Assembly (NCBI GenBank): GCA_900637705.1 | Contig: LR134390.1 | Location: forward strand, 744,001 to 808,000 | Direction of reading: 5' to 3' | Length of the DNA: 64,000 nt | From: Fusobacterium varium | GTDB taxonomy: Bacteria > Fusobacteriota > Fusobacteriia > Fusobacteriales > Fusobacteriaceae | Shown: positions 2,301 to 61,653 of the stretch, piece by piece | How the letters are laid out: each line of letters opens with the position of its first letter | Numbering within the stretch: the first letter of the stretch is position 1 | Notes under the pieces: generated by a model | Told to the model about the DNA's origin: nothing | The model's input: the letters and a program-made list of their open reading frames with translations, nothing else | The model's database searches: none | Position numbers and translations under genes: made by a program

Positions 2301-3718
2301 ATGCTTAATGGAAAAAATCTAAATATTCTAGGGCTTTTATTTCAGAATGAATACACGGTTGAAGACCTATCCTCTGTTCTAAATCTCAATTCTAGGACTA
2401 TACGTTATAATATAAAAGATATAAATACAGTGCTAAATAAATGTAATTTAAATGGAATATTAAAAAATAAAGATAAATATTTTATTGAAAAAAAAGAAAT
2501 GGTTAAAATAAAAAAGTTAATTTCTGAATTTTCTTCACTTACTTATATTGATAGAAGAGATTATTTAATAACTAAACTTTTAATAGATGACAAAATAATA
2601 TTGAGTCATGAAAGTAGGATACTAGATGTAACAAGAAGAACTTTAAATTATGATTTAGTAGAGATAAAAAATTTCTGGCACCATACTCTATAACAGTTGA
2701 AGTTATACATGGGAAAGGAATAACTTTACATGGAGATGAAAAACATCTTAAAATACTTTTAATTGCCTTTCTTACTAAATTTATTTCAAAGGGAAAAGAG
2801 CTTAAAAATGTTTTTAAAGAGCTACTTTATTCAATAGTGACAGAAAAAAAGTTGAACGAATATATGCTTCAGGGAAATAAACTGCTCAAGATGGCTAATA
2901 AAAATATTCAAACATACAGTTTTTATGCAATAATAGCTGTATTTGTAGATTCTCATCTAAAAAGAAAGAGTTTTGAAAATAATTATATATATGCTCATTC
3001 ATCACAGCAATATTATGAATATTTTAATATAGTAAGAGAGTTTGTAAAAGATGATATAGAACTAAGTAATTTTTCTATTCATACAATAACACTTATACTT
3101 ATGGGAATATATTCAGCAGATTTGAATGAGAGTTTACATAGAGATATAGAAGAATTTTTAAAAGAGTTAAATGAAAAATATAATGATGAATTAAATATGG
3201 ACGAAGAGTTTATTCGTAAAATATTTTCAGTAATTAAGATATCCATATATAAATCAAAATTTAATATTGTACAGAAAAATCTCGATTTTACAGATGTTCC
3301 TAAGTATTGTTTGAAAATTTTTAATACAATATATGAAATGGTACCTAAGTATTTTATGGAGTTTGTTATGGAAGATTTTATACTTTTGGCAATAATTCTT
3401 CAGGAAAATATTGATAAGAAAAAATATGCTGAGAGTAAACCTAAGAGAATACTTGTAGTAGATAATACTTTTGAGCAAAGAGCTACTGAAACAGTTATAA
3501 AAAAACTTCAGTGTACATACAAAATAGAGATTGTAGAAGTAATACCAGATTATCGAATAGAATATTTTCTTTCTGAAAATAAAAATATAGACCTCATCAT
3601 ATCTCTTGCAAATTTAGATGATGAGCCTCATGGAATACCAGTTTTAAAGATTTATCTCAGTGATTTTTGGAATGGAATAAATGTTTTAGATGAATTTAAT
3701 ATACCTAAAAATTATTAA
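2301..3718 (+). pseudogene. PRD-domain (BglG/MtlR-like) regulator, frameshifted
   Basis: Two reading frames together encode one protein of about 472 residues. Part one (2301-2693) carries an N-terminal helix-turn-helix (VEDLSSVLNLNSRTIRYNIKDIN) and a second one (RILDVTRRTLNYDL). It stops abruptly, while the frame that opens at about 2654 continues with VEVIHGKGITLHGDEKHL and runs to 3718 through helical PRD-like sequence to a C-terminal PTS EIIB-like domain (RILVVDNTFEQ, then DLIISLANL). Restoring one base in the AAAAATTTC stretch near 2675 joins them. Such proteins sense PTS phosphorylation and activate sugar genes. No PTS operon is adjacent, so the target is unknown. The break may be a sequencing error (see the homopolymer finding). 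Confidence 0.75.
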
Positions 3719-27205: not shown

Positions 27206-27550
27206 AAATCACCTCCTGACTAATGATAAATTTTATCATAAATTTAAAATGCTTACAAGTGATTTTAATGTGCTTTTAAATGAAATAGAGGGTATCTCCA
27301 AAGTATTGAAATGATTAAAATTATGTTTATAATGAGGAGTATTTATAATTTTTTATAGAGAAAATATTTTTATTTTTATTCAGATTATAGGTATAAAAAA
27401 CTTTTATAAAAAGAGTGTTATTTTAAAGGGAAAACATAGAAAATATTGTAAGAAAATATTATAAGAAAATATTATAAGAAAATACTATAAAGGAATTTAT
27501 ATTTTAGAAAAGTAAAAAATGACTGCTAGTCAGCAGCCATCTTTATGTTA
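27206..27550. repeat. Gene-free stretch with tandem repeat and terminator
   Basis: 345 bases with no gene. At about 27436-27493 a 15-base unit (AGAAAATATTATA with small changes) repeats four times. At 27514-27538 the minus strand carries the hairpin GGCTGCT/AGCAGTC followed by T residues, which ends the leftward polysaccharide transcript. Confidence 0.65.
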
Positions 27551-29049
27551 TTATTTTTTCCACAAATAAATTTGTGCTTTTTCATAGCTATTTAAAGCCA
27601 TAAACCAAAGTAATAAAGCATATACCAATGTATAAAGTCCTGTTTTTATTAAAAAGTTTAAATAATTAACTTCCACTAGATAAAGATTTAAAATATATCC
27701 AAGTGCCATTCCAATTGCAATAGGTATTGACATGTGAAAAATATTTTTCCAAAATTTGATTATATCTAATTTTACTACAACTTTATAATAAATATTCATA
27801 ACTATTATCTGTCCCAAGATAAAAGAAAATCCTGTAGCTATTGCACAGCCGATTACTCCTATTTTCTTTACCAAAATAATACTTAGTATTAAATTTAAAA
27901 TAGCTATTATAAAATAAACTATCGATCTAAATTGGTGCATATTTTTGGCTTGCATTATACTTATACCAGTAGTTTGAATTAAAGGGACTGTTAATGGAAT
28001 CATTATCCATAATGCAATACTGTATGCTTCAATGTACTCCTTTCCAACCCATAAAGTTATAAAATCTTTTCCGAATAATATAAAACCAGATGATATTAAC
28101 CCTAGAAGAATATATTGCAATCTTCCAACCTTCAAAAATATTTCATCTACTTCTTGATGTTTTTCTTCTACTATTAATTTATTTATTCTAGGAAATAAAA
28201 CACCTGAAACTGCTGATGCAAATCCCATATAAAGAGTATTGAAAATTGCTCCAACTGAGTATATTGCAATTCCTTGAACACCAATGTATTTTGCTATTAT
28301 AACTCTATCAGTTCCCCAATAAATTTGATCAATTAAGACATTTAAAAAAATAAAAATGAGTATATAAATATTTCTTTTAAAATAATATTGTTAAATTTAG
28401 AAAATTTTATTTTCATACCCAATTTAAAAGCATAAATCATATCAAATAAATAAGAAATTAATGCAAAACATACAGTAGAAGCAGTTACTGCTATTAATCC
28501 AAAGCCATTTATCATTAAAATTGCTCCAACAATAGGATTCAATATGATTGTAATGAGTTTTATTCCTCTTTGGTATATAAATTTTTCTTTAGATGTTAAA
28601 TTAGTTGAAAAAATTCCCATAGGAAAGGAAATAATAACATTTAAAACCAATATTGTAAATACTGCTTTTGTTTTTTTTAGTTCCTCTATTGTAAAGCTTA
28701 CTTTAAAAAATTTTTCTATATTGAAATATATATACACACCAATAATAAAAGCTATTGCCATTAAAATTGAGAAAATCATTAAGAACATTCCATTTAAAGA
28801 TTTTTCTTCTTCTATCTTTCCTTCAGCCCGATATTTTGTTGTATATCTTAGCATTGTATTTCCTAAACCTAAGTTTAAAATAGAGATATATCCTATTATT
28901 GATTGAACTAATGAATTTATTCCATAATCTCCAGGACCTAAATATTTTATGTATAGAGGTGTATATAAAATTTGAATGACTGAGCTTACAATTATTGTCA
29001 TCATTGAAAGAGTTGTTCCTATTTTTAATTCGTTCTTAGCCATAATCAC
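27551..29049 (-). pseudogene. Polysaccharide flippase (Wzx/MATE-like), frameshifted
   Basis: Two frames on the minus strand form one 12-to-14-segment lipid-linked oligosaccharide flippase of about 499 residues. The N-terminal part (29049-28342) begins with KIGTTLSMMTIIVSSVIQILYTPLYIKYLGPGDYGI-type family sequence. The C-terminal part (from 28228) contains VLFPRINKL and KNMHQFRSIVYF. The sequence between them stays codon-like in the second frame (DQIYWGTDRVIIAKYIGVQGIAIYS, in parts), and adding one T to a seven-T run near 28345 joins the two. The protein would flip surface polysaccharide units across the inner membrane. Break is real, phase-variable or a sequencing error; the last is favoured. 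Confidence 0.78.
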
Positions 29050-29051
29050 CT

Positions 29052-30140
29052 CTATTTGCTATTTAAAAAACTATCTAATTTTAAAAAGTGTTTTTCTCCA
29101 TCTTGAGCTGCATTTAAAAGAATATTCGGAGATAATACTTTATTTTCTCTAAATTTTGAAAAATTTAACTTTTCTAAATTTTCTAAAGAAACATAATTTT
29201 GTTCAAATTCTAAATCTTCTAAGACATTTGTCATTTTTTTACTGTATGCTATAGGAAATACAGCTTTTTTAAGAACAAATCCCAATATCATAGCATGAAA
29301 TCTTGTTGCAATAATACTATCAGATTTGTTTAATATTTCCAGTGCTTCATTTATATCTCCTCTATAAAAATACTTGGAAATATATTTATGCTGCTCAATT
29401 GGTATCATACTTAATAATTTTTTTATAGCTTCTTCATCTTTTTCACCTTGGCAAAAAGACATAAGTTTTACTTCTTTTCCACTTTTTATAATATCTAATA
29501 CCAATGTTTTTAATTTACTAAAATATTCTGCTTCTATTTCTGAAAATTCTGGTCTTGCAGATGGTAAAATTATAGAAAATAATACGTAATTCTCTTTTTC
29601 TACTACATCTTGTTTTAGACTAAAGACTATGTCCTTTCCAAATCTTACATTTTCTAAATCTTTAAAAAGTTCATATGAATATTTTTCTCTAAAACATACA
29701 TCTTTACATTTTTTAAAGAATTCATGATACATATTTTTAAAGGCTTCACTTTTATAAGGACCAAAATTTGCTCCTAAAATAAAGTAATTTTTTCCGAATT
29801 TTAAATTTCTTTCTCTAATTTTAAAATCTTCCTTTAAAAAATCATTTTCTATAAAAATTGAACCACCTATATTAACCACACCATCTAATTCTTTTAGTTT
29901 TAAATCTTCTAGAATATTTGGTATTCCAATTTTTTTTCCTAAACGGAATAATACTTTTTTTGTAAAAGTATCATTATATAAAATTTTTAAATTGTTTGTT
30001 TTTATTCCTTTTAAATTTTTATATTCAGGGGTAGCAAAAAGATAAAACTCAGTATTTTCATATCTTTCGCAAAGTATTTTTATAAAAAGATCATCTCCTA
30101 AGTTTAGCTGTGTATATGCTTTTATTAATATTTTTTTCAT
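29052..30140 (-). CDS. Polysaccharide pyruvyl transferase family protein
   Basis: 362 residues with the family start MKKILIKAYTQLNLGDDLFIKILCERY, VVNIGGSIFIEND, and near the C-terminus SIIATRFHAMILGFVLKKAVFPIAYSKK, including the RFHA motif typical of the CsaB/pyruvyl-transferase fold. It likely adds a pyruvate ketal (or a similar group) to a surface glycan. It sits between the flippase (two-base gap) and the glycosyltransferase (one-base overlap). Confidence 0.85.
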   Translation of the reverse strand: MKKILIKAYTQLNLGDDLFIKILCERYENTEFYLFATPEYKNLKGIKTNNLKILYNDTFTKKVLFRLGKKIGIPNILEDLKLKELDGVVNIGGSIFIENDFLKEDFKIRERNLKFGKNYFILGANFGPYKSEAFKNMYHEFFKKCKDVCFREKYSYELFKDLENVRFGKDIVFSLKQDVVEKENYVLFSIILPSARPEFSEIEAEYFSKLKTLVLDIIKSGKEVKLMSFCQGEKDEEAIKKLLSMIPIEQHKYISKYFYRGDINEALEILNKSDSIIATRFHAMILGFVLKKAVFPIAYSKKMTNVLEDLEFEQNYVSLENLEKLNFSKFRENKVLSPNILLNAAQDGEKHFLKLDSFLNSK

Positions 30141-31104
30141 TATTTTTCACCTAATTTTCTTGTTAATATTTTTTTTAGTGGCTTAAGCCACAACATTTTT
30201 AGCCTGAAAATTCTGTAATAGTAATACATTTTTATATCTAAAGTTTCTATTCTATTTAATTTTTTTATTTCTTTTTTTATTTCCACATAATATTTTTTCC
30301 AATTTTCAATATTATTTTCACTTAATTTTTGAAGTACATCAAAGGGGTACATTATACCATGATATTTGAAGCATTCCCTAACTTTATTTATATTTTCTTT
30401 ATATACTCCATTGCTTTTATAAAAGTTTATTAATTCATTTATAACAATATAAATATCTATTCTGTTTTTATAATTATTTGAAACTGATTCTTGATTCATA
30501 AAATAATTATAATAGGGTTTATCAATAGATATGATATTTTTACTGTAGAAAAAACACATAAAATTAAAGAATAGATCTTCTCCTGCATAGACATCTAATA
30601 AAAATTTAATATTATTTTTATCTAATATTTCTTTTCTATAAATTTTATTCCATGGAGATGCAAACCAATCTGCTGTACAATCTACATAGTCATCTTTATT
30701 TTGTTTTTCAGAAACATTAACTATTGAAAGAAGATTTCCATTTTCATTCAGTTTTTTAAAACCACATATGACTATATCTGCTTTTTTTCTCTCAGCCTCA
30801 TTTACCATATCTATATACATATCTTCATCTATCCAATCATCTGAATCTAAAAAAGTTATATATTTTCCTTTAGCTAAAGAAATACCTAAATTTCTGGCAG
30901 AACTGCAGCCACCATTTTCAACTTTTTTGAATATTATGTTCTTATTTTTAATGACAACTCTAGACATATATCAGAAGTTTTATCTTTTGAACCATCATCT
31001 ATAATTATTATTTCAATATTTTTTAATTTTTGATTTAAAATTGAATTTATACATCGTTCAATATATTTTTCAATATTATAAGCTGGGACTACAACACTTA
31101 ACAT
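30140..31104 (-). pseudogene. Family 2 glycosyltransferase, frameshifted
   Basis: The N-terminal 55 or so codons begin at an ATG at 31104 with an AAGGAAGG box (MLSVVVPAYNIEKYIERCINSIL, then IIIIDDGSKDKT, the GT-A nucleotide-binding start). They then run out of frame at about 30960. The other frame continues with KVENGGCSSARNLGISLAKGKYITFLDSDDWIDEDMY, holding the DSDD metal-binding motif, and extends to 30140. Adding an A in the five-A run repairs the join. The product would transfer a sugar during surface polysaccharide assembly. The contiguous 30140-30967 frame alone lacks the nucleotide-binding start and could not be a complete enzyme. Confidence 0.78.
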
Positions 31105-31314
31105 TTTAACCTTCCTTATATAATTTTATTTTAAATTATATAATGAAGAATAAAATAATTCAAATAAATTTATAATCAATACAATACTAGTTGTTTAATC
31201 TTATAGTTTTTATAGTACTGGATTATTGATATAATATTAGCTGGAGGAAATATTAAATAAGTTATTAGAGAATTATAGATTTATGGAAATTATATTGGTT
31301 GAATATAAATATAA

Positions 31315-31413
31315 AGATGGATAGCAAAGAGATCTGTTCTTAGAGAAATGCAAGAAGCTTTAGGCATAGATAGAGAAAGAATAGTAGCTGGAGAAACTAA
31401 AATAAAAACTTAG
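31315..31413 (+). pseudogene. Orphan C-terminal gene fragment
   Basis: Between the glycosyltransferase and the restriction system (31105-31801) there is no full gene. About 30 codons (WIAKRSVLREMQEALGIDR, then ERIVAGETKIKT and a stop) look like the end of a real protein, with a terminator 27 bases later, but no start or upstream coding sequence was found. Unrecognised. The rest of the stretch is AT-rich, with a promoter-like TATGATACAAT near 31752 ahead of the small regulator gene. Confidence 0.35.
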
Positions 31414-31439
31414 AGAGGGAAGTTTAAAAAAAATAAGGA

Positions 31440-31470
31440 CCAGGAAGTTTAATTTCTTCCTGGCATTTTT
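31440..31470 (+). terminator. Terminator following the gene fragment
   Basis: Perfect stem CCAGGAAG/CTTCCTGG with five T residues. It is very similar in stem, loop and tail to the terminator at 26421. Confidence 0.8.
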
Positions 31471-31801
31471 ATATAAAAACATAAGAATAATTGCATTATA
31501 AAGAAAGTAATAATATATTTTAACTCAATTGTTTTTTATAAGAATTTAAAAATAGTCCTATTTGGAATAAGAAATATGTTATAATAACTTCAAAAATAAT
31601 TTTGATCCCTTTAAAATAATAAAAAATCATTCTAATAAAATATTTAAGTAAAAAATATTCGGGTTTAGAAAAGAGTTTATGAAATCTAAAAATATTGCAA
31701 GAGAAATCTTAGAATAGCCTTGATTTTTATTATAGTTAAAAATTTCAAATTATGATACAATAAAAAAGTTAATATGATAGTAGAAAAGTAAGAGGTGCAG
31801 T

Positions 31802-31960
31802 ATGAATTTTTCATGTAATAAATTGTTAAAAAGGTTAGTAAATGAAAAAGTTAAAAAAGTAGAATTACAAAAAGAAATAAAAACAAGTTTAAAAACAACT
31901 TTTAAGCTGTTTAATTACAGTGTTTATGAAATTATTGAATATAAAAAAGAGAAGGTTTAA
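31802..31960 (+). CDS. Small XRE-like regulator ahead of the restriction system
   Basis: 52 residues from an ATG with an AGAGGTG box, ending two bases before the first methylase. NKLLKRLVNEKVKKVELQKEI matches the start, and TSLKTTFKLFNYSVYEIIEYKKE the end, of the short Xre/HTH_26 regulators (YozG-like). The middle recognition-helix section is missing, so it looks internally deleted. It is positioned like a controller protein of a restriction-modification operon. Confidence 0.5.
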   Translation: MNFSCNKLLKRLVNEKVKKVELQKEIKTSLKTTFKLFNYSVYEIIEYKKEKV

Positions 31961-31962
31961 AA

Positions 31963-32988
31963 ATGAGATTTATTGGAGGAAAGGCATTAATTATGCCTTA
32001 TATACTTAATTTAATAGATAAAAAAACAGAAAATGTAGAGTCAGTATCAGATTTATTTTCTGGTTCAGGGATAGTAACAAGAACATTGAAAAAAAATGGA
32101 TTTAAAACAATATCAAATGATTTAATGTATTTTAGTTATGTAATTTTAAGAGGGACTGTTTCTTTAAATTATAAGCCTACATTCAAAAAATTAAATATCA
32201 GTAATCCAATAGAATATTTAAATAAATTAGAATCAAAAAATATGAAGATAGCTTCTGAGAAATTATTTATTTATAATAATTATAGTCCTAAAGGACAAAG
32301 GATGTATTTTACTGAAAAGAATGCAATTAAGATTGACTTGATAAGAAATGAAATTGAAATATGGAAAACGTCATCAAAAATAACTGAAGATGAATATTAT
32401 TACTTGTTGGCATGTCTTTTAGAATCTGTTCCATATATAAGTAATATTACGGGTGTATATGGAGCTTATTTGAAGCATTGGGATAAAAGAGCTTTAAATG
32501 AATTAGAATTAAAAGAATTAGAAATTGAAAATAATTCCTATAAAAATTTAGTTTATAATGAAGATGCAAATGTACTAACTAAAGAAATTGAATGTGATTT
32601 AGCATACTATGACCCTCCATATAATCAAAGACAATATTTACCAAACTATCATATCTTAGAAACAATAGCTAGATATGATGCTCCAATTATAAAAGGTGTA
32701 ACTGGATTAAGAGATTACAAAAAACAAAAAAGTAAGTACTGTAGTAAAGCTACAGTGTTGAAGACTTTTGAAAGTTTGATTAAAAATACTAAATCTAAAT
32801 ATATAATCATTAGCTATAATACAGAGGGAATATTGTCTCATGATGAGATATGTGATATATTATCAAGATATGGAAAAGCACACACATTATATGTTCAACA
32901 CATTGAGTATCTAAGATATAAAAATGTACATACAAATAAAAATAAAGAACTGAAAGAAATATTATATTTTATAGAAAAGGAGGTTTAG
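31963..32988 (+). CDS. Adenine methyltransferase M1 of a FokI-like type IIS system
   Basis: 341 residues. The AdoMet-binding region reads SVSDLFSGSGIVTRTLKKNG, and the catalytic motif IV is DLAYYDPPYNQRQYLPNYH, marking an N6-adenine methylase. The MRFIGGKALIMPYI start resembles one domain of the two-domain M.FokI. Because the FokI site GGATG is asymmetric, two methylases are needed, one for each strand; here they are separate genes (next gene 32993). Motif order: AdoMet motif first, then DPPY. Confidence 0.85.
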   Translation: MRFIGGKALIMPYILNLIDKKTENVESVSDLFSGSGIVTRTLKKNGFKTISNDLMYFSYVILRGTVSLNYKPTFKKLNISNPIEYLNKLESKNMKIASEKLFIYNNYSPKGQRMYFTEKNAIKIDLIRNEIEIWKTSSKITEDEYYYLLACLLESVPYISNITGVYGAYLKHWDKRALNELELKELEIENNSYKNLVYNEDANVLTKEIECDLAYYDPPYNQRQYLPNYHILETIARYDAPIIKGVTGLRDYKKQKSKYCSKATVLKTFESLIKNTKSKYIIISYNTEGILSHDEICDILSRYGKAHTLYVQHIEYLRYKNVHTNKNKELKEILYFIEKEV

Positions 32989-32992
32989 TTGT

Positions 32993-33832
32993 ATGTATTT
33001 AAAATCACCATTTAACTATATAGGAAATAAATATAGACTCCTACCTCAAATTTTACCTTTATTTCCAGAGAAATGTGATACTTTCTATGATATGTTTTGT
33101 GGAGGGTTAGATGTCACTATAAATATGAATTCTAAAAGAAAAGTGGCTAATGATATTAATCATTTTGTTATTGAAATAATGGAGTTTTTTAAAGGAAAAA
33201 ATTATGAAGATCTTATTAAAGAAATAGAAGAGACTATAGAAAAATTTAATTTATCAAAAGAAAATAAAGAATCTTATTATTTATTTAGAGATTATTACAA
33301 TAAGAATAAAAATCCTTTATGCCTTTATGTATTGATGAGTTTTTCATTCAATTACCAATTTAGATTTAACTCAAATTTGGATTATAACAATCCAGCTGGA
33401 ACTGATAGAAGTAGTTTTAATCCTGCCCTTAAAAATAGACTTTTTGAATTTATAAAAAAACTAGAAAATATAGAATTCTTAAATAAAAATTTTAAGGATT
33501 TTGATTATTCTTGTATAAAAAGTAATGATTTTATTTATTGTGATCCTCCATATAGAATGTCAGTAGGATCATATAATGATGGAAAAAGAGGATTTGAAGG
33601 TTGGGGAATAAAAGATGATCTTGCTTTATTTGAAATATTAGATGAATTAAATGAGAGAGGAATACGATTTGCTTTATCTAATGTATTTTTTAACAATGGA
33701 TTTACCAATAAGGAATTAGCAAAATGGAGTGAGAAATATAATGTACATATTTTAAAAATTAATTATGAAAATAGCAACTATCAGAGAAATAAACTTTTTA
33801 AAACAAAAGAAGTCCTGATCACTAATTATTAG
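32993..33832 (+). CDS. Adenine methyltransferase M2 (Dam-like) of a FokI-like type IIS system
   Basis: 279 residues of the D12/Dam class: FNYIGNKYRLLPQILPLFP at the start, TFYDMFCGGLDVTIN for AdoMet binding, and YCDPPYRMSVGSYNDG as catalytic motif IV. It begins four bases after M1 and ends nine bases before the nuclease gene. It probably methylates the adenine on the other strand of the asymmetric site. Length of M1 plus M2 (620) is near that of single-chain M.FokI. Confidence 0.88.
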   Translation: MYLKSPFNYIGNKYRLLPQILPLFPEKCDTFYDMFCGGLDVTINMNSKRKVANDINHFVIEIMEFFKGKNYEDLIKEIEETIEKFNLSKENKESYYLFRDYYNKNKNPLCLYVLMSFSFNYQFRFNSNLDYNNPAGTDRSSFNPALKNRLFEFIKKLENIEFLNKNFKDFDYSCIKSNDFIYCDPPYRMSVGSYNDGKRGFEGWGIKDDLALFEILDELNERGIRFALSNVFFNNGFTNKELAKWSEKYNVHILKINYENSNYQRNKLFKTKEVLITNY

Positions 33833-33841
33833 GAGGAGTAT

Positions 33842-35550
33842 ATGATAGAAAGAACTTTTGGTTGGATACAAAATCCTTCCGATTTCTCAAAGCTAAAAAA
33901 TGTAGTTTCAGTTTTTATGACTGACAGTGATATTTATAAAGATCTTTTAAATAGGAAAATTCCATCTCTAATTGAAAATGAAGTTTTAAAAAAAAAGATG
34001 ATAGAAGAAATGAAAAAAGTTCCATTAGAGATGGATTACAGATTATTGAAAGGACATGGTCCTTGTAATAAAGAGTCTAGGAGCAATGTAAAATGTTCTG
34101 GAATTATCCAAGCAGCAATACCAAATCAAAAGAGAAGAGAATATTCAGATGATTGGACAGCAGATGGATTCCTTAGATGGGCAATTTCTATAGGTTTATT
34201 AGATTATAATATTGATAATGATACAGTTTCAATAACAGAATTAGGGAAGAAGTATATTCTTGCTGATGATAAGAAAAAGAAAATGAAATACTTGTAACTG
34301 CATTTTTATCATATCCTCCCGCTGTTAGAATTTTAAATTTATTAGAGTCTGGAGATATATTAACAAAATTTGAGATTGGAAAGCAACTTGGTGGATTAGG
34401 AGAGGCTGGCTTTACATCAATTCCACAAGATTTATATATACAAGCAATTGAAACAACAAATGATTCAACTAAGAGTAAGATTAGATCAAATACAGAAGGA
34501 TCTGCTGATAAATATGCACGTATGATATGCAGTTGGCTATTAAAAGTGGGACTTGTTCAAAAAGTTAAAAAAGAAGTAAAAACTATTATAGGGAGTATTG
34601 AATATAAGACTAAAATTGGTCATTCTTATAAAATTACACTTAATGGGTTAAAAGAGTTAAAAAGAACAAAAGGAGTTTCTTCATATAAAAGAATCAGTAA
34701 AATTGTTTATTGGCAAATGCTAGCTACAAAAGGTAATGATAGAGATTATATTCGTAATCGTAGAGGTTATATTATTAAGGCTATCAATAATAGATATAAG
34801 AAAATAGAGGAAATTCAGAAGTATTTGAAAAAGAATAGTATAGAAGAAAATATTGCAACAATAAATGATGAAATACAAGTATTAATTGCTATGGGATTAT
34901 CTGTAAAAGAGAATAAAAAAGGTTTTATCATTGATGATACTATTTTAAAATTTGAAATTCCAGTAACAAAAGTATCCAAAACAAATATACTAGAATTAAA
35001 AGATAATACAAGAGAAAAATTAGTTTATTTGGATCATAGGTATTTATCTTTATTTGATTTAGCTTATGATGATAAAGCAAGTAGAGATTTTGAGATACAA
35101 ACAATAGATTTACTAATTAATGAATTACAGTTTAAAGGATTAAGGTTAGGGGAAAGGAGAAAGCCAGATGGTATTATTTCATATGGAGTAAATGGTGTTA
35201 TTATTGATAATAAAGCTTACTCTAAAGGATATAACCTGCCTATACGCCAAGCTGATGAAATGATTAGATATATTCAAGAAAATCAAAGCAGAGATGAAAA
35301 ATTAAATCCTAATAAATGGTGGGAAAATTTTGAGGAAGAGACAAGTAAATTTAATTATCTTTTTATATCTTCTAAGTTTATAAGTGGATTTAAAAAAAAT
35401 TTGCAATATATAGCAGATAGAACAGGAGTAAATGGTGGAGCAATAAATGTTGAAAATTTATTATGTTTTGCAGAAATGTTAAAATCAGGAAAATTAGAAT
35501 ATAATGATTTTTTTAACCAATATAATAATGATGAAATAATTATGAGATGA
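33842..35550 (+). pseudogene. FokI-like type IIS restriction endonuclease, frameshifted
   Basis: Two frames, 33842-34297 and 34522-35550, joined by codon-like sequence between them (EILVTAFLSYPPAVRILNLLESGD and so on), make one protein of about 569 residues with the layout of FokI (583). The recognition part starts TFGWIQNPSDFSKLKNVV and has DDWTADGFLRWAISIG. The cleavage domain has RKPDGII...VIIDNKAYSKGYNLPIRQADEM with the PD-DxK catalytic aspartates and lysine, then NPNKWWENF. The FokI layout predicts cutting at a distance from an asymmetric site. Adding one A in the AAGAAAATG stretch near 34281 restores the frame. If the break is real, the host keeps only protective methylation. Confidence 0.88.
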
Positions 35551-35649
35551 TCTTTTAATTGAATAGGAGGGTGCATTGCAAATTATTTTGTTAATTTGAT
35601 TTAAAATTATTTATATTAAGAATAAATAAATAAATGTATTAATTTATAA

Positions 35650-36982
35650 AAACCAGAGATTATTTGGTCTATACCCTGTCAAGTAGACAATTAAAAAAAA
35701 GAATGACTAAATGGTTTGAATTCGGTATTCTACTGGACTCAAACCATTTAATTTTTTTTGGATCCTTTCATTGTTGTAAAAATCTATATAATTTTTCACT
35801 ATTTCAATTGTTGTTTCCATATTTGATACCTTATTTAAATACAATGCTTCACTTTTAAGGTGACTAAAGAATGATTCAATAGGTGCATTATCCCAGCAGT
35901 TACCTCTTCTAGACATTGAAACTCTTATCCCATGGCTTTCTAATCTTTGAATATATTTTTCTCTAGTATATGTACTTCCTTGATCGGTATGGATTAAACA
36001 ATTCTTAGCTAGTGGAAGTTTAAAAAGTTTTTCTAAAGTCTTATCTACAAGTTCAGCATTATTGCTTAAACTTAATTCATAAGCTACAATTTCTTTATTT
36101 GAAATATCTTTTACTGCATTTAAATACAAAAAATTTCTTGTTCCAAGTATTTCGATATATGTTGTATCCATAGTTAAAACCTTTAATGGTTGAGTTTCAT
36201 TAAACTCACGATTTAAAATATTTTGAGCTACTCTAGCTGGTTGATAATGTCTATATCTATATTTCTTTCTAATGACGGATTTTATTCCATTTTCTTTCAT
36301 AATTCTGTATATTCTTTTATGATTTACTTGATAATTTGTATTTTTATTTACATAAATTTGAAGTCTTCCAACGCCATAAATACCTTTTATCTTTTTATGA
36401 CATTCAAGTATTAGCGCTGTTATTTCTATATTTTGTTCAGCTCTTTTAGAGAGAGTCCTAGTTCTATTTTTCCATTTGTAATATCCACTTCTTGAACACT
36501 CAGCAAAACGACATAATGAGCTTAAAGAATATTTTTTCCTCATCTCATCAATGATTTGAAATGTATTAATTTTTTTACTTTTTTGCTGAGCCCGTAACTT
36601 TTTTAAATACTCATTCTCCATTCTCAAATACTCAATCTCTTCTTCAAGAGAATTAAATTTAGTTCTTGGTCTTCCTTTGATGGGTCCTTTAACTTTACCA
36701 CGAGTTTCAAAATCAAAGGCAGTTTCTCCAAGTAATTTAAACTTTTTTACCCAAGCAGCAACTTGGGAATCATTCTTAACATTCATTTCTTTAGCTACAG
36801 TCAGATATCCACCGTTTCCCTCAAGATATCGCTTAACTACAGCTAATTTAAATTCTTTAGAATATCTGTTATTAATTTTAGACATAAAAATCCCCCTTAG
36901 TTAGACCTTACAACACTATTATATATGTGTTTTTTTCAAATGTCTACCTAAAGGGGATTATACCAATTCTCTGGCTTTTTTT
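35650..36982 (-). mobile_element. IS3-family (IS150-like) insertion sequence
   Basis: Element of about 1.3 kb with one transposase gene and imperfect terminal inverted repeats. The left end near 35668-35700 reads TATACCCTGTCAAGTAGACA; the right end, read on the opposite strand near 36962-36930, reads TATAATCCCCTTTAGGTAGACA. The match continues outward through CCAGAGA...TCTCTGG. No clear target duplication was found. It sits 100 bases after the nuclease gene, between it and the racemase gene. Confidence 0.82.
35707..36885 (-). CDS. IS3-family transposase, single frame
   Basis: 392 residues. The N-terminal helix-turn-helix (KEFKLAVVKRYLEGNGG, WVKKFKLLGETAF) and leucine-zipper-like EEEIEYLRMENEYLKKL correspond to OrfA. 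The C-terminal integrase core has the DDE residues in LTMDTTYIEI, HTDQGSTYTRE and NAPIESFFSHLK. Most IS150-like elements need a programmed -1 frameshift to fuse OrfA and OrfB; here they are in one frame across an A-rich stretch (codons for QQKSKKIN). Confidence 0.92.
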   Translation of the reverse strand: MSKINNRYSKEFKLAVVKRYLEGNGGYLTVAKEMNVKNDSQVAAWVKKFKLLGETAFDFETRGKVKGPIKGRPRTKFNSLEEEIEYLRMENEYLKKLRAQQKSKKINTFQIIDEMRKKYSLSSLCRFAECSRSGYYKWKNRTRTLSKRAEQNIEITALILECHKKIKGIYGVGRLQIYVNKNTNYQVNHKRIYRIMKENGIKSVIRKKYRYRHYQPARVAQNILNREFNETQPLKVLTMDTTYIEILGTRNFLYLNAVKDISNKEIVAYELSLSNNAELVDKTLEKLFKLPLAKNCLIHTDQGSTYTREKYIQRLESHGIRVSMSRRGNCWDNAPIESFFSHLKSEALYLNKVSNMETTIEIVKNYIDFYNNERIQKKLNGLSPVEYRIQTI

Positions 36983-37361
36983 GTATTATATTCACCTTCA
37001 TCAAAAAATATTTTGATTATCATAATAAAAAACTACTATTTTTTAAAAATTTATTGAAAAGTGTTTTTTTATGAATTAAAGAATAAAATTTTTGTTTTTG
37101 CGGTATGACTCAGGTATGACTCACTTTTTTTATCAATCTTCTCAAACACACAACAAAAGCTCCCTTGAGAGTGAGAGCTTTTGTTCGTAGAAATTAAAAT
37201 GTAATTTAAGGAAATGTCCTATGACAATATTATTATATCACATATAATTATTCTGTCAACAAATATTTTGAAAAACAAATAAAAAATAAATTTGTAGTTG
37301 TCATATAATAAATAAAAAGGTATAATTTAATATAGTATTTTGGGAGAGAGGTGCATAAATT
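36983..37361. other. Gene-free stretch with tandem repeat and hairpin
   Basis: The gap between the transposase start and the racemase gene. It contains a perfect tandem 11-base repeat GGTATGACTCA (37102-37123) and a strong hairpin ACAAAAGCTC/GAGCTTTTGT around 37150-37186. The hairpin may have been the terminator of the restriction operon before the insertion sequence arrived. A GGGAGAGAGG ribosome site precedes the racemase start. Confidence 0.5.
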
Positions 37362-42145: not shown

Positions 42146-43449
42146 ATGAAATTATTTGGTACTATGAAAGCAGAAAATGGAATATTAGAAATAGGAGGAA
42201 TAAAAGTTACTGAATTAGCAGAGAAATATGGAACACCTCTATATATAATGGATCAATCTCTTATAGAAGAAAATATAATTAAATATAAAAATAATTTTAA
42301 AAGTAGTAAATTTGATACATCTATTGTATATGCTTCCAAAGCATTTTTATCAAAAGCCATATGCCAGTTAGTTGAAAAATATGATATAGAAATAGATGCT
42401 GTATCTGGAGGAGAATTATATACTATAAAAACAAGTGGACTTCCTATGAAAAAAGTTCATATGCATGGAAATAATAAAACTGATGAAGAATTAGAAATGT
42501 GTCTTGATTATGAAATAGGAAGCATTATTATTGATAACGAAGAGGAGATAGAAAGATTATCAAGAATATGTAAAGAAAAAAATAAAAAATTAAAGTTATG
42601 ATGAGAATAAATATTGGAATAGATGCTCATACACATGAATATATAAAAACTTCTAAACATTCATCAAAATTTGGAGAATCAATATTCGATGAGAGAATAA
42701 CAGAAATTGTAGGAAAGATAGTTAAAGATGAAAACATGGAATTTTTAGGTTTCCATTGTCATATTGGATCTCAAATATTTGATACTAAAGCTTTTCATGA
42801 AGGAATAGAATCTATGGTAAAAGAAACTAAAAAAATATCAGAAGTTTTAGGAATATATATTCCAGAAATAAATCTTGGAGGAGGATTTGGAGTATACTAT
42901 ACAGAGAAGGATACAGCAATAGATGTAGAACAATTTATGAAATCTATGATAGAACATTTAGAAAGAAGTTTAGAAGCTGAAAAGATGAAATTAAAAAAAG
43001 TTTCTATTGAGCCAGGAAGAAGTATTGTTGCTAATGCAGGAAGCACTTTATACACAGTTGGAGGAACAAAAACTACTTATGGGGGAGTAAAATATATATT
43101 TATAGATGGAGGAATGACTGACAATATAAGACCAGCATTATATCAAGCTGAGTATGAAGCTGTAGTAGCAAATAAAATTAATGAACCAGCAGAAGATGTA
43201 GTGACAATAGCTGGAAAATGTTGTGAATCTGGAGATTTAATAATTAAAAATGGGAAACTGGCAAAGGCTGAAACAGGTGACTTAATATTGGTAGCAACAA
43301 CAGGGGCTTATGGGTACTCAATGTCTAACAATTATAATAAAGCTCCAAAACCAGCAGTAGTATTTGTTAAAGATGGAAAAAGTGCTCTATCAATAAAGAG
43401 GGAAAGTTTGGAAGATCTTGTTAGAAACGATGTATTGATAGATATTTAG
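42146..43449 (+). pseudogene. lysA: Diaminopimelate decarboxylase LysA, frameshifted
   Basis: Two frames (42146-42601 and 42598-43449) form a complete LysA of about 434 residues that decarboxylates meso-diaminopimelate to lysine. Part one has the PLP lysine in IVYASKAFLSKA and DAVSGGELYT. Part two has FHCHIGSQIFD, NLGGGFGVYY, SIEPGRSIVANAG, the CCESGDLI active-site cysteine motif, and a C-terminal TGAYGYSMSNNYN. One A missing from the TTAAAGTT stretch at about 42593 explains the split (KKLKV then MMRINIG). Given the riboswitch operon context the gene is expected to be functional and the break an error. Confidence 0.88.
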
Positions 43450-60367: not shown

Positions 60368-61653
60368 TTAAAAATTGAATTTGATTTTTCTTCTAGGTCT
60401 ACCTGCACCAGGAGTATTTTCAAATTCAGCCTCTTCTCCATAACCATTTTCAATGATTTTTTTCAGTATGCGATTGACACTTCTTTCACTAATTTCAAAT
60501 ATTCCAGCAAGTTCTTTGCTAGAGAAAGTATTTTTATTGTATTTTTTTTAATCGATTTTAATTTTTCTAAATAGGTAGAACTGATACCTATCTTTTTAGA
60601 AAGTTCAAAAATATCTTTTGTAACAGAATCGCTATATTGAAGTGTGTTATCTGTTAATAAAGGACCAGAAATATTTTTTCCATCATAGAAGTATATCTCG
60701 TTTTTGCTTTTTAAAAGACTTAATTTTAAAGCTTTTCTTCCATTGACTTCAGCTTGCAGAATAGTTTGCCCTTCACCAATCCCTATTCCTACATAGAAAT
60801 CTTTTTTAGCAGTGTTTTTAATAAGGGAAGTAATTATTTTTAAGCTTTCTTTTTCTAGTAAAAGTCCTTTATTGGCTAAAATATAATATTCTTCATTTCC
60901 AAGAAATTGTATATTCCCTTGAATTTCTTTAGCATATTCTAATAATTGCGTTTCAAAGCTATTTTTATTTTGTAAAGTCTTTTGAGTAAGTTCTGAAATA
61001 TTTTTTTTAATAAGTTTAATTATTTGGACACCAATCCCTGTTTTTTCAAGTTCTTTTATTTTTGCCATGAATTCTAACTTTTTAAATTCTAATTTTATTT
61101 CAGTGTTAGTTGCCTGTAATCTATAAACTGGAACATTGAGTCTTTTTAAATAATAATAAATATATCCAAAAGCTGTAATAACGCAGTCTATTTCTTTTGA
61201 TTTTAATTTTTCAAGATAATTTTTAAGATATTCTTCTTCAGTTTTAGAATATTCATATTCTTGAAGGTAGTAATTTTTTATTTTAATTTCATACTCTTCA
61301 AAAACATCTTTTAACATTTTTTCCTCAATAAGATCTATACCTATTTTTAAATTATCTATGAAGTCATAATCTTTTTGGAGATGTAAAAAAGCTTTGATTA
61401 TTCCCATTTCACCTCTTTTGGTATAAACAATAGCTTTGTTAGAGAGGTCAGTTTTGAGATTAAGAGATGAATAAATTCCAATTCCTGTAAGGTATATTCC
61501 ATCTATATCATTTTCTAAATTTTGAATAAGAGGAATCATTTCCTCAATTTTTTCTTTTGGATATTTAAAAAATTTAACTTCCTTGTATTCAGAAGAAAGA
61601 ATACCATATATTTTCTCAACAGAGTCAGGAGCTCCTATAATAGCTATTTTCAT
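60368..61653 (-). pseudogene. Transcriptional regulator with GGDEF-like and C-terminal HTH domains, frameshifted
   Basis: About 428 residues if repaired. The N-terminal sensor-like region begins MKIAIIGAPDSVEKIYGILS. A GGDEF-like fold of the CdaR type lies near residues 290-335 (VGIGIGEGQTILQAEVNGRKALKLS). The frame as read ends at 60463 with a nonsensical tail, whereas the other frame encodes a clear helix-turn-helix (SSKELAGIFEISERSVNRILKKIIENGYG) and a basic end (GAGRPRRKIKFNF, stop at 60368). Adding one A in the long A run near 60548 joins them. Probable regulator of the adjacent AbgT operon. Confidence 0.72.

What the first reader, a model, noticed from the sequence alone, without database searches (positions are those of the whole stretch)
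31802..35550. FokI-like type IIS system with separate methylases
The nuclease aligns in layout with FokI over its whole length, including the PD...DNK centre, but with a loop shorter by about four residues between the two aspartates. M1 and M2 are separate genes, unlike the fused M.FokI. The system should recognise an asymmetric site such as GGATG. The nuclease frame is broken, but probably by a read error.
Basis: partly seen in the sequence, partly recalled or inferred. Interest (0 to 1): 0.62.

Follow-up and report, generated by a model that had tools for sequence, protein, structure and literature searches.

The report
FokI-type restriction system, split methylases
This is an ordinary member of the well-known FokI family of DNA-cutting defence systems, from a branch in which the two protective methylases are separate genes; its host genome avoids the predicted target GGATG more significantly than any other five-letter word, which independently supports the predicted target.

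Summary
Window 31802-35550 holds a Type IIS restriction-modification cassette: two separate D12-class adenine methylases (M1, M2) and a nuclease with all four FokI Pfam domains, 39-43% identical to FokI over its whole length. The PD...DNK loop is exactly four residues shorter than FokI's. Neither difference is peculiar to this genome: both mark a strongly supported branch (100/100) of FokI relatives, where the loop is always short and the methylases nearly always split. A likely member of that branch, Csp12AI, was cloned in 2016; its methylases modify GGATG and CATCC. GGATG is therefore the expected site, and the host agrees: in 400 kb it is the most significantly depleted of 507 five-letter words (143 seen, 466 expected; ratio 0.31, against 0.65-0.72 in three sister species without the system). 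The nuclease frame lacks one base. Three conserved genes in the same window carry the same kind of lesion beside A-runs but are intact in sister species, so sequencing error is the likelier cause. A small upstream gene is the remnant of a regulator that is intact in close relatives; that deletion is too large to be a read error. Verdict: new member of a known kind.

The parts
31802..31960 (+). Remnant of a small Cro/C1-type (HTH_26) regulator; about 20 residues, including the recognition-helix region, are missing compared with intact 73-77 aa relatives
   Evidence: blastp to 73-77 aa ORFs in L018, L019, L020, L045; side-by-side sequences; the L018 protein hits PF13443 at 2.6e-15, the window ORF hits nothing
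31963..32988 (+). M1: D12-class N6-adenine methylase, counterpart of the N-half of M.FokI; predicted to modify GGATG
   Evidence: PF02086 9.4e-45; 46% to M.FokI residues 1-342; FSGSG and DPPY motifs intact
32993..33832 (+). M2: D12-class N6-adenine methylase, counterpart of the C-half of M.FokI; predicted to modify CATCC
   Evidence: PF02086 2e-34; TIGR00571 dam 1.9e-41; 50% to M.FokI residues 364-642
33842..34297 (+). Nuclease, N-terminal part (recognition subdomain D1), first reading frame
   Evidence: PF02981 3.9e-38; 39% to FokI
34270..34290 (+). Frame break in an A-rich stretch; one base fewer than six relatives
   Evidence: DNA alignment with L018-L022 and L045
34273..35550 (+). Nuclease, remaining part in the second frame: recognition subdomains D2 and D3, and the cleavage domain with PD...DNK
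   Evidence: PF02980, PF16902, PF09254; 43% to FokI; AlphaFold2 model pLDDT 91.9, best PDB match 1fok/2fok, TM 0.92-0.94 by query length

Best explanation
A FokI-type Type IIS restriction-modification system with site GGATG/CATCC. Its M1-M2-R gene set belongs to a cassette that has moved between distant bacteria. M1 methylates the adenine of GGATG on one strand and M2 that of CATCC on the other, so both strands of each newly replicated site are protected. The nuclease reads the unmethylated site with its N-terminal domains (D1, D2, D3). It then cuts at a fixed distance downstream with a PD-DxK domain, which must pair with a second molecule's domain, as in FokI. Shown here: gene content, domain and fold identity, intact catalytic motifs, branch membership, horizontal distribution of the family, GGATG avoidance by the host. 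Inferred: site, modified bases, cut distance (about 9/13), dimerisation and activity of the nuclease, which depends on the frame break being a sequencing error.
For: All four FokI domains plus two D12 methylases. 39-43% identity to FokI end to end. Fold model matches 1fok/2fok with TM 0.92-0.94. PD, D and K of the active site are invariant in 31 relatives. Six relatives at about 70% identity have the same M1-M2-R order. Phylogenetic bracketing: FokI (GGATG) on one side; on the other Csp12AI, whose M1 and M2 modify GGm6ATG and Cm6ATCC (PMC4752239). Its likely orthologues L024/L025 fall inside the window's branch and show the same unlinked R gene. GGATG is the most significantly depleted 5-mer in 400 kb of the host, ratio 0.31, z -13, while all 15 single-base variants lie at 0.76-1.35. 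M1 and M2 are the only D12 methylases in the genome.
Against: No methylome or digestion data. N217 and W219 of FokI are S and T here, and the M2 hairpin PFGR of M.FokI and the Csp12AI-like enzymes reads PAGT; a shift in specificity is not excluded. GGATG is mildly depleted in the genus even without the system (0.65-0.72) and is not depleted in the sampled part of FokI's own host (0.94, only 40 kb), so avoidance is supportive rather than diagnostic. Csp12AI itself was not in the sequence sets searched; its link to L024/L025 is inferred from gene layout and family.
Confidence: 0.87

Rival explanations
1. Degraded system: the frame break is a true mutation, the nuclease is dead, and M1 and M2 persist as orphan methylases that protect against incoming GGATG nucleases or have a regulatory role.
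For: The frame is broken in the sequence as given. The upstream regulator has a multi-codon deletion that cannot be a read error. Broken nucleases occur in relatives (L045, L059, L060). A sister species (G009) keeps an orphan M1 homologue.
Against: Three conserved genes in the window that are intact in the sister genomes compared (lysA-like 42146-43434, 60371-61653, 2301-3715) carry the same one-base loss beside A-runs, and a flippase gene is split at a T-run; this points to systematic indel error. Outside the break the nuclease shows no other stop and keeps every catalytic residue. GGATG avoidance implies pressure that lasted a long time.
Confidence: 0.25
2. Same kind of system with an altered site: the window's subclade recognises a relative of GGATG rather than GGATG itself.
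For: Substitutions N217S and W219T in the nuclease and PFGR to PAGT in M2, both shared with the close relatives.
Against: L024/L025, likely Csp12AI orthologues with GGATG methylases, also carry W219T and a changed N217. R79, Q95, N13, W105, E220, K225 and R228 are kept. The most depleted host 5-mer is exactly GGATG and none of its single-base variants is depleted.
Confidence: 0.08
3. The frame break is used: programmed slippage or phase variation in the A-rich stretch regulates the nuclease.
For: The break lies in an A-rich run where slippage could happen.
Against: No close relative has a long homopolymer there; they read through in one frame. The A runs are short (4-5). Similar one-base losses hit unrelated housekeeping genes in the same window.
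Confidence: 0.03

Closest known systems
Csp12AI system of Clostridium sp. 12(A) (M1.Csp12AI, M2.Csp12AI, R.Csp12AI; PMC4752239)
   Same: FokI-like nuclease with two separate FokI-type m6A methylases. Its likely orthologues L024/L025 sit in the same short-loop branch as the window.
   Different: There R lies 1.2 Mb from M1/M2; here the three genes are contiguous. L024/L025 are about 49% identical to the window nuclease and have QEA in place of QNP in the D1 arm.
FokI / M.FokI of Planomicrobium okeanokoites (L048)
   Same: Same four nuclease domains in the same order, same active site, same two methylase types, M before R.
   Different: M.FokI is one fused 647-aa protein; FokI's catalytic loop is four residues longer; about 39-43% identity in R, 46% in M1, 50% in M2.
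HTH-M1-M2-R cassettes in Peptoniphilus duerdenii, Allofustis seminis, Veillonella seminalis, Negativicoccus massiliensis, Neofamilia massiliensis (L018, L019, L020, L022, L045)
   Same: Same M1-M2-R order, split methylases, loop length 11, 64-75% protein identity.
   Different: L018, L019, L020 and L045 keep an intact HTH regulator, the window and L022 do not; all but L045 have an unbroken nuclease frame; flanking genes differ everywhere.
Pin25611FI / Pin17FI of Prevotella intermedia (PMC5608340)
   Same: Separate M1 and M2 with GGATG/CATCC methylation seen by SMRT sequencing.
   Different: The R genes span only about 1.4 kb, shorter than a FokI nuclease gene, and the order given is R next to M1; not compared by sequence here.

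Membership tests
FokI-type Type IIS R-M system | Nuclease with FokI D1, D2, D3 recognition subdomains and FokI cleavage domain in that order | tested here: met
   PF02981, PF02980, PF16902, PF09254 all far above the curated cut-offs; full-length alignment to 1fok/2fok
FokI-type Type IIS R-M system | FokI fold | tested here: met
   AlphaFold2 model of the 425-aa C-part, pLDDT 91.9; best PDB hits are FokI, E 1e-40 to 1e-43, TM 0.92-0.94 by query length. The N-part was not modelled because of the frame break.
FokI-type Type IIS R-M system | PD-DxK catalytic residues (D450, D467, K469 of FokI) | tested here: met
   Present and invariant across 31 relatives (D299, D312, K314 of the C-part)
FokI-type Type IIS R-M system | Two N6-adenine methylase activities, one per strand of the asymmetric site | tested here: met
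   Two D12 methylases matching the N- and C-halves of M.FokI. Presence tested, activity not.
FokI-type Type IIS R-M system | Recognition of GGATG | tested here: inconclusive
   Bracketed by FokI and Csp12AI; host avoidance ratio 0.31, rank 1 by z; but contact-side substitutions N217S, W219T and M2 PAGT
FokI-type Type IIS R-M system | Cleavage outside the site at 9/13 and dimerisation for cutting | not testable with these tools
   Needs purified protein
FokI-type Type IIS R-M system | Intact nuclease reading frame | tested here: not met
   One base missing as the sequence stands; likely read error. Bears on activity, not on kinship.
Short-loop, split-methylase branch (Csp12AI-like) | Placement in the branch on the nuclease tree | tested here: met
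   17-row clade with bootstrap/SH-aLRT 100/100
Short-loop, split-methylase branch (Csp12AI-like) | Catalytic loop of 11 residues and separate M1 and M2 | tested here: met
   Loop 11 in all 18 members; methylases split in 15 of the 16 members with classifiable methylases

The most novel reading that the evidence does not exclude
The window's subclade carries coordinated changes in nuclease recognition subdomain D2 (N217S, W219T) and in the M2 target hairpin (PFGR to PAGT) that give it a site different from GGATG, so the family would offer natural FokI specificity variants.
Probability: 0.08. Interest if true: 0.5.

Novelty: new member of a known kind. Interest (0 to 1): 0.27.

Why it matters
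It also offers a host genome in which GGATG avoidance is extreme, which is unusual evidence for long exposure to this specificity. Natural FokI relatives with a shorter catalytic loop could interest people who use the FokI cleavage domain as a tool, but nothing here shows altered activity.

Tried and rejected
Pfam and NCBIfam with the upstream ORF P0002: no useful match (NCBIfam VanU at E 0.008, well under its cut-off); only comparison with intact relatives showed what it is. phmmer of M1 against the PDB: no match. tblastn of the nuclease against phage records: none. Of five IMG/VR contigs, the 72% one is the Allofustis contig again; the other four (37-39%) were not followed. Programmed frameshifting considered and rejected. 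Specificity from methylase residues alone: M2 shares 93 of the 142 columns on which M.FokI and the Csp12AI-like enzymes agree, but T4 Dam (GATC) shares 77, so this has little power. GGATG avoidance as a general mark of carriers: rejected, because several carriers, FokI's own host among them in a 40 kb sample, do not avoid it. No held paper names FokI, GGATG and StsI together, and the FokI structure paper PMC27934 was not held; the list of FokI contact residues is from my own knowledge except N13 and D450, whose mutants are described in PMC4081073.

Full report
What is there. Window 31802-35550 (+ strand) holds, in order, a 52-codon ORF (31802-31960), M1 (31963-32988), M2 (32993-33832) and a nuclease in two frames (33842-34297 and 34273-35550). 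M1 and M2 are D12-class adenine methylases with intact SAM and DPPY motifs. The nuclease carries all four FokI Pfam domains in order, aligns with FokI from residue 4 to 567 at E 1.5e-135, and is 39% (N-part) and 43% (C-part) identical to it. An AlphaFold2 model of the C-part (pLDDT 91.9) matches FokI structures 1fok/2fok at TM 0.92-0.94 and no other family comparably.

What the two differences mean. One scan of 84,980 genomes returned 46 related loci, among them P. okeanokoites, the FokI source, as a positive control (L048). In them methylases occur both fused and split. A maximum-likelihood tree of the nucleases puts the window in a branch of 17-18 sequences with full support. All members have a catalytic loop of 11 residues where FokI has 15, and 15 of the 16 with classifiable methylases have them split. 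FokI and most fused systems lie outside it. The tree needs only three changes between fused and split, against about 12 expected for shuffled labels. A review (PMC4081073) says that separate methylases are usual in Type IIS systems and that the FokI fusion is the less common form.

Site. The likely experimentally studied member of this branch is Csp12AI: M1 and M2 were cloned and shown by SMRT sequencing to modify GGm6ATG and Cm6ATCC, and the nuclease was characterised (PMC4752239). Csp12AI itself was not in the searched sets. I take L024 (Lacrimispora celerecrescens) and L025 (Clostridium sp. Marseille-P2415) as its likely orthologues: both have FokI-like R genes without methylases nearby, and adjacent M1 and M2 far away (for L025 on the same contig about 2.6 Mb off). 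The window lies between FokI and these on the tree, so GGATG is the parsimonious site. Of the FokI residues I recall as base contacts, Q12, N13, R79, Q95, W105, E220, K225 and R228 are kept; N217 and W219 are S and T. L024/L025 also carry T at 219. In M2 the hairpin PFGR is PAGT in the window and L018. This leaves some doubt.

An independent line: in 400 kb sampled over the host genome, GGATG/CATCC occurs 143 times against 466 expected from 4-mer and 3-mer counts (ratio 0.31, z -13). It is first of 507 words by z and second by ratio after GAGAC/GTCTC. All 15 single-base variants lie at 0.76-1.35. Three sister species without the system show 0.65-0.72. A fourth, G009, with an orphan M1 homologue, shows 0.44. 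M1 and M2 are the only D12 methylases in the host. Caveats: a mild depletion is a background of the genus, and some carriers, among them FokI's own host (0.94 in 40 kb), show none. The avoidance supports GGATG for this host but does not prove it.

The frame break. Against six close relatives the window lacks one base in an A-rich stretch between D1 and D2. In about 28-32 kb of coding sequence that the window shares with each of three sister species, three further genes are split by a one-base loss next to an A-run. One of them looks like diaminopimelate decarboxylase, which is intact in all three sisters. No window gene was found split in a sister. A flippase gene at 27551-29049 is split at a T-run in the same way. 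Four or five lesions of one kind in 64 kb fit indel errors of a long-read assembly better than decay. I put about 0.7 on a sequencing error. The upstream regulator is different: relatives have a 73-77 aa Cro/C1-type HTH protein there, and the window lacks about 20 residues of it. L021 and L022 have also lost it, so the cassette seems able to persist without it (inference).

Mobility. Only the window's genome among 98 of its phylum has a FokI domain. In other phyla, cassettes with 80-92% identical DNA sit among unrelated flanks in Peptoniphilus, Allofustis, Veillonella, Negativicoccus and Neofamilia. In the window the cassette lies in a variable stretch (27377-37119) with glycosyltransferase-like and flippase genes, where the sister genomes carry other content, next to an IS3-family element with two further near-identical copies. 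Horizontal gain is the natural reading.

Mechanism. By homology to FokI: M1 and M2 each protect one strand; the nuclease binds unmethylated GGATG through D1-D2, releases its cleavage domain, pairs it with that of a second molecule and cuts about 9 and 13 bases downstream. Only the sequence-level parts of this were tested here.

Noticed in passing
window 42146-43434, 60371-61653, 2301-3715, 27551-29049: Genes split by what looks like a single-base loss beside A- or T-runs; the first three are intact in the sister genomes compared. Points to systematic indel errors in this assembly.
   Followed up: partly
window 35665-36966: IS3-family element just downstream of the nuclease (transposase 35707-36885), with two more near-identical full copies in the genome.
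   Followed up: partly
window 27377-37119: Variable stretch with flippase and glycosyltransferase-like genes; conserved flanks are joined by about 0.6 kb in sister G002 and by about 40 kb of other content in G001 and G007.
   Followed up: partly
host genome, 400 kb sample (L108-L127): GAGAC/GTCTC is also strongly depleted (40 seen, 193 expected, ratio 0.21), more so than in sister G007 (0.33). May mark another past or present restriction specificity.
   Followed up: no
sister genomes G002 and G009 (samples L148-L157 and L158-L167): CTGCAG is absent from 200 kb of G002 (89 expected), and GATC is at 0.19 of expectation in G009.
   Followed up: no
L071 and L212 6598-7698 (G009): Orphan D12 methylase 46% identical to M1, with no M2 or nuclease found nearby, in a sister species whose most depleted 5-mer is also GGATG.
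   Followed up: partly
L017 4533-5459 (Staphylococcus haemolyticus plasmid): FokI-like protein truncated to 308 aa (recognition part only), followed by IS257; similar short matches in several S. aureus plasmids.
   Followed up: no
alignment of 43 nucleases, FokI positions 13-14, 103 and 109: Residues co-vary in three sets (roughly N-P/D/G, D-P/G/N, E-A/S/S) across the family, which could mark specificity or binding-mode classes.
   Followed up: no
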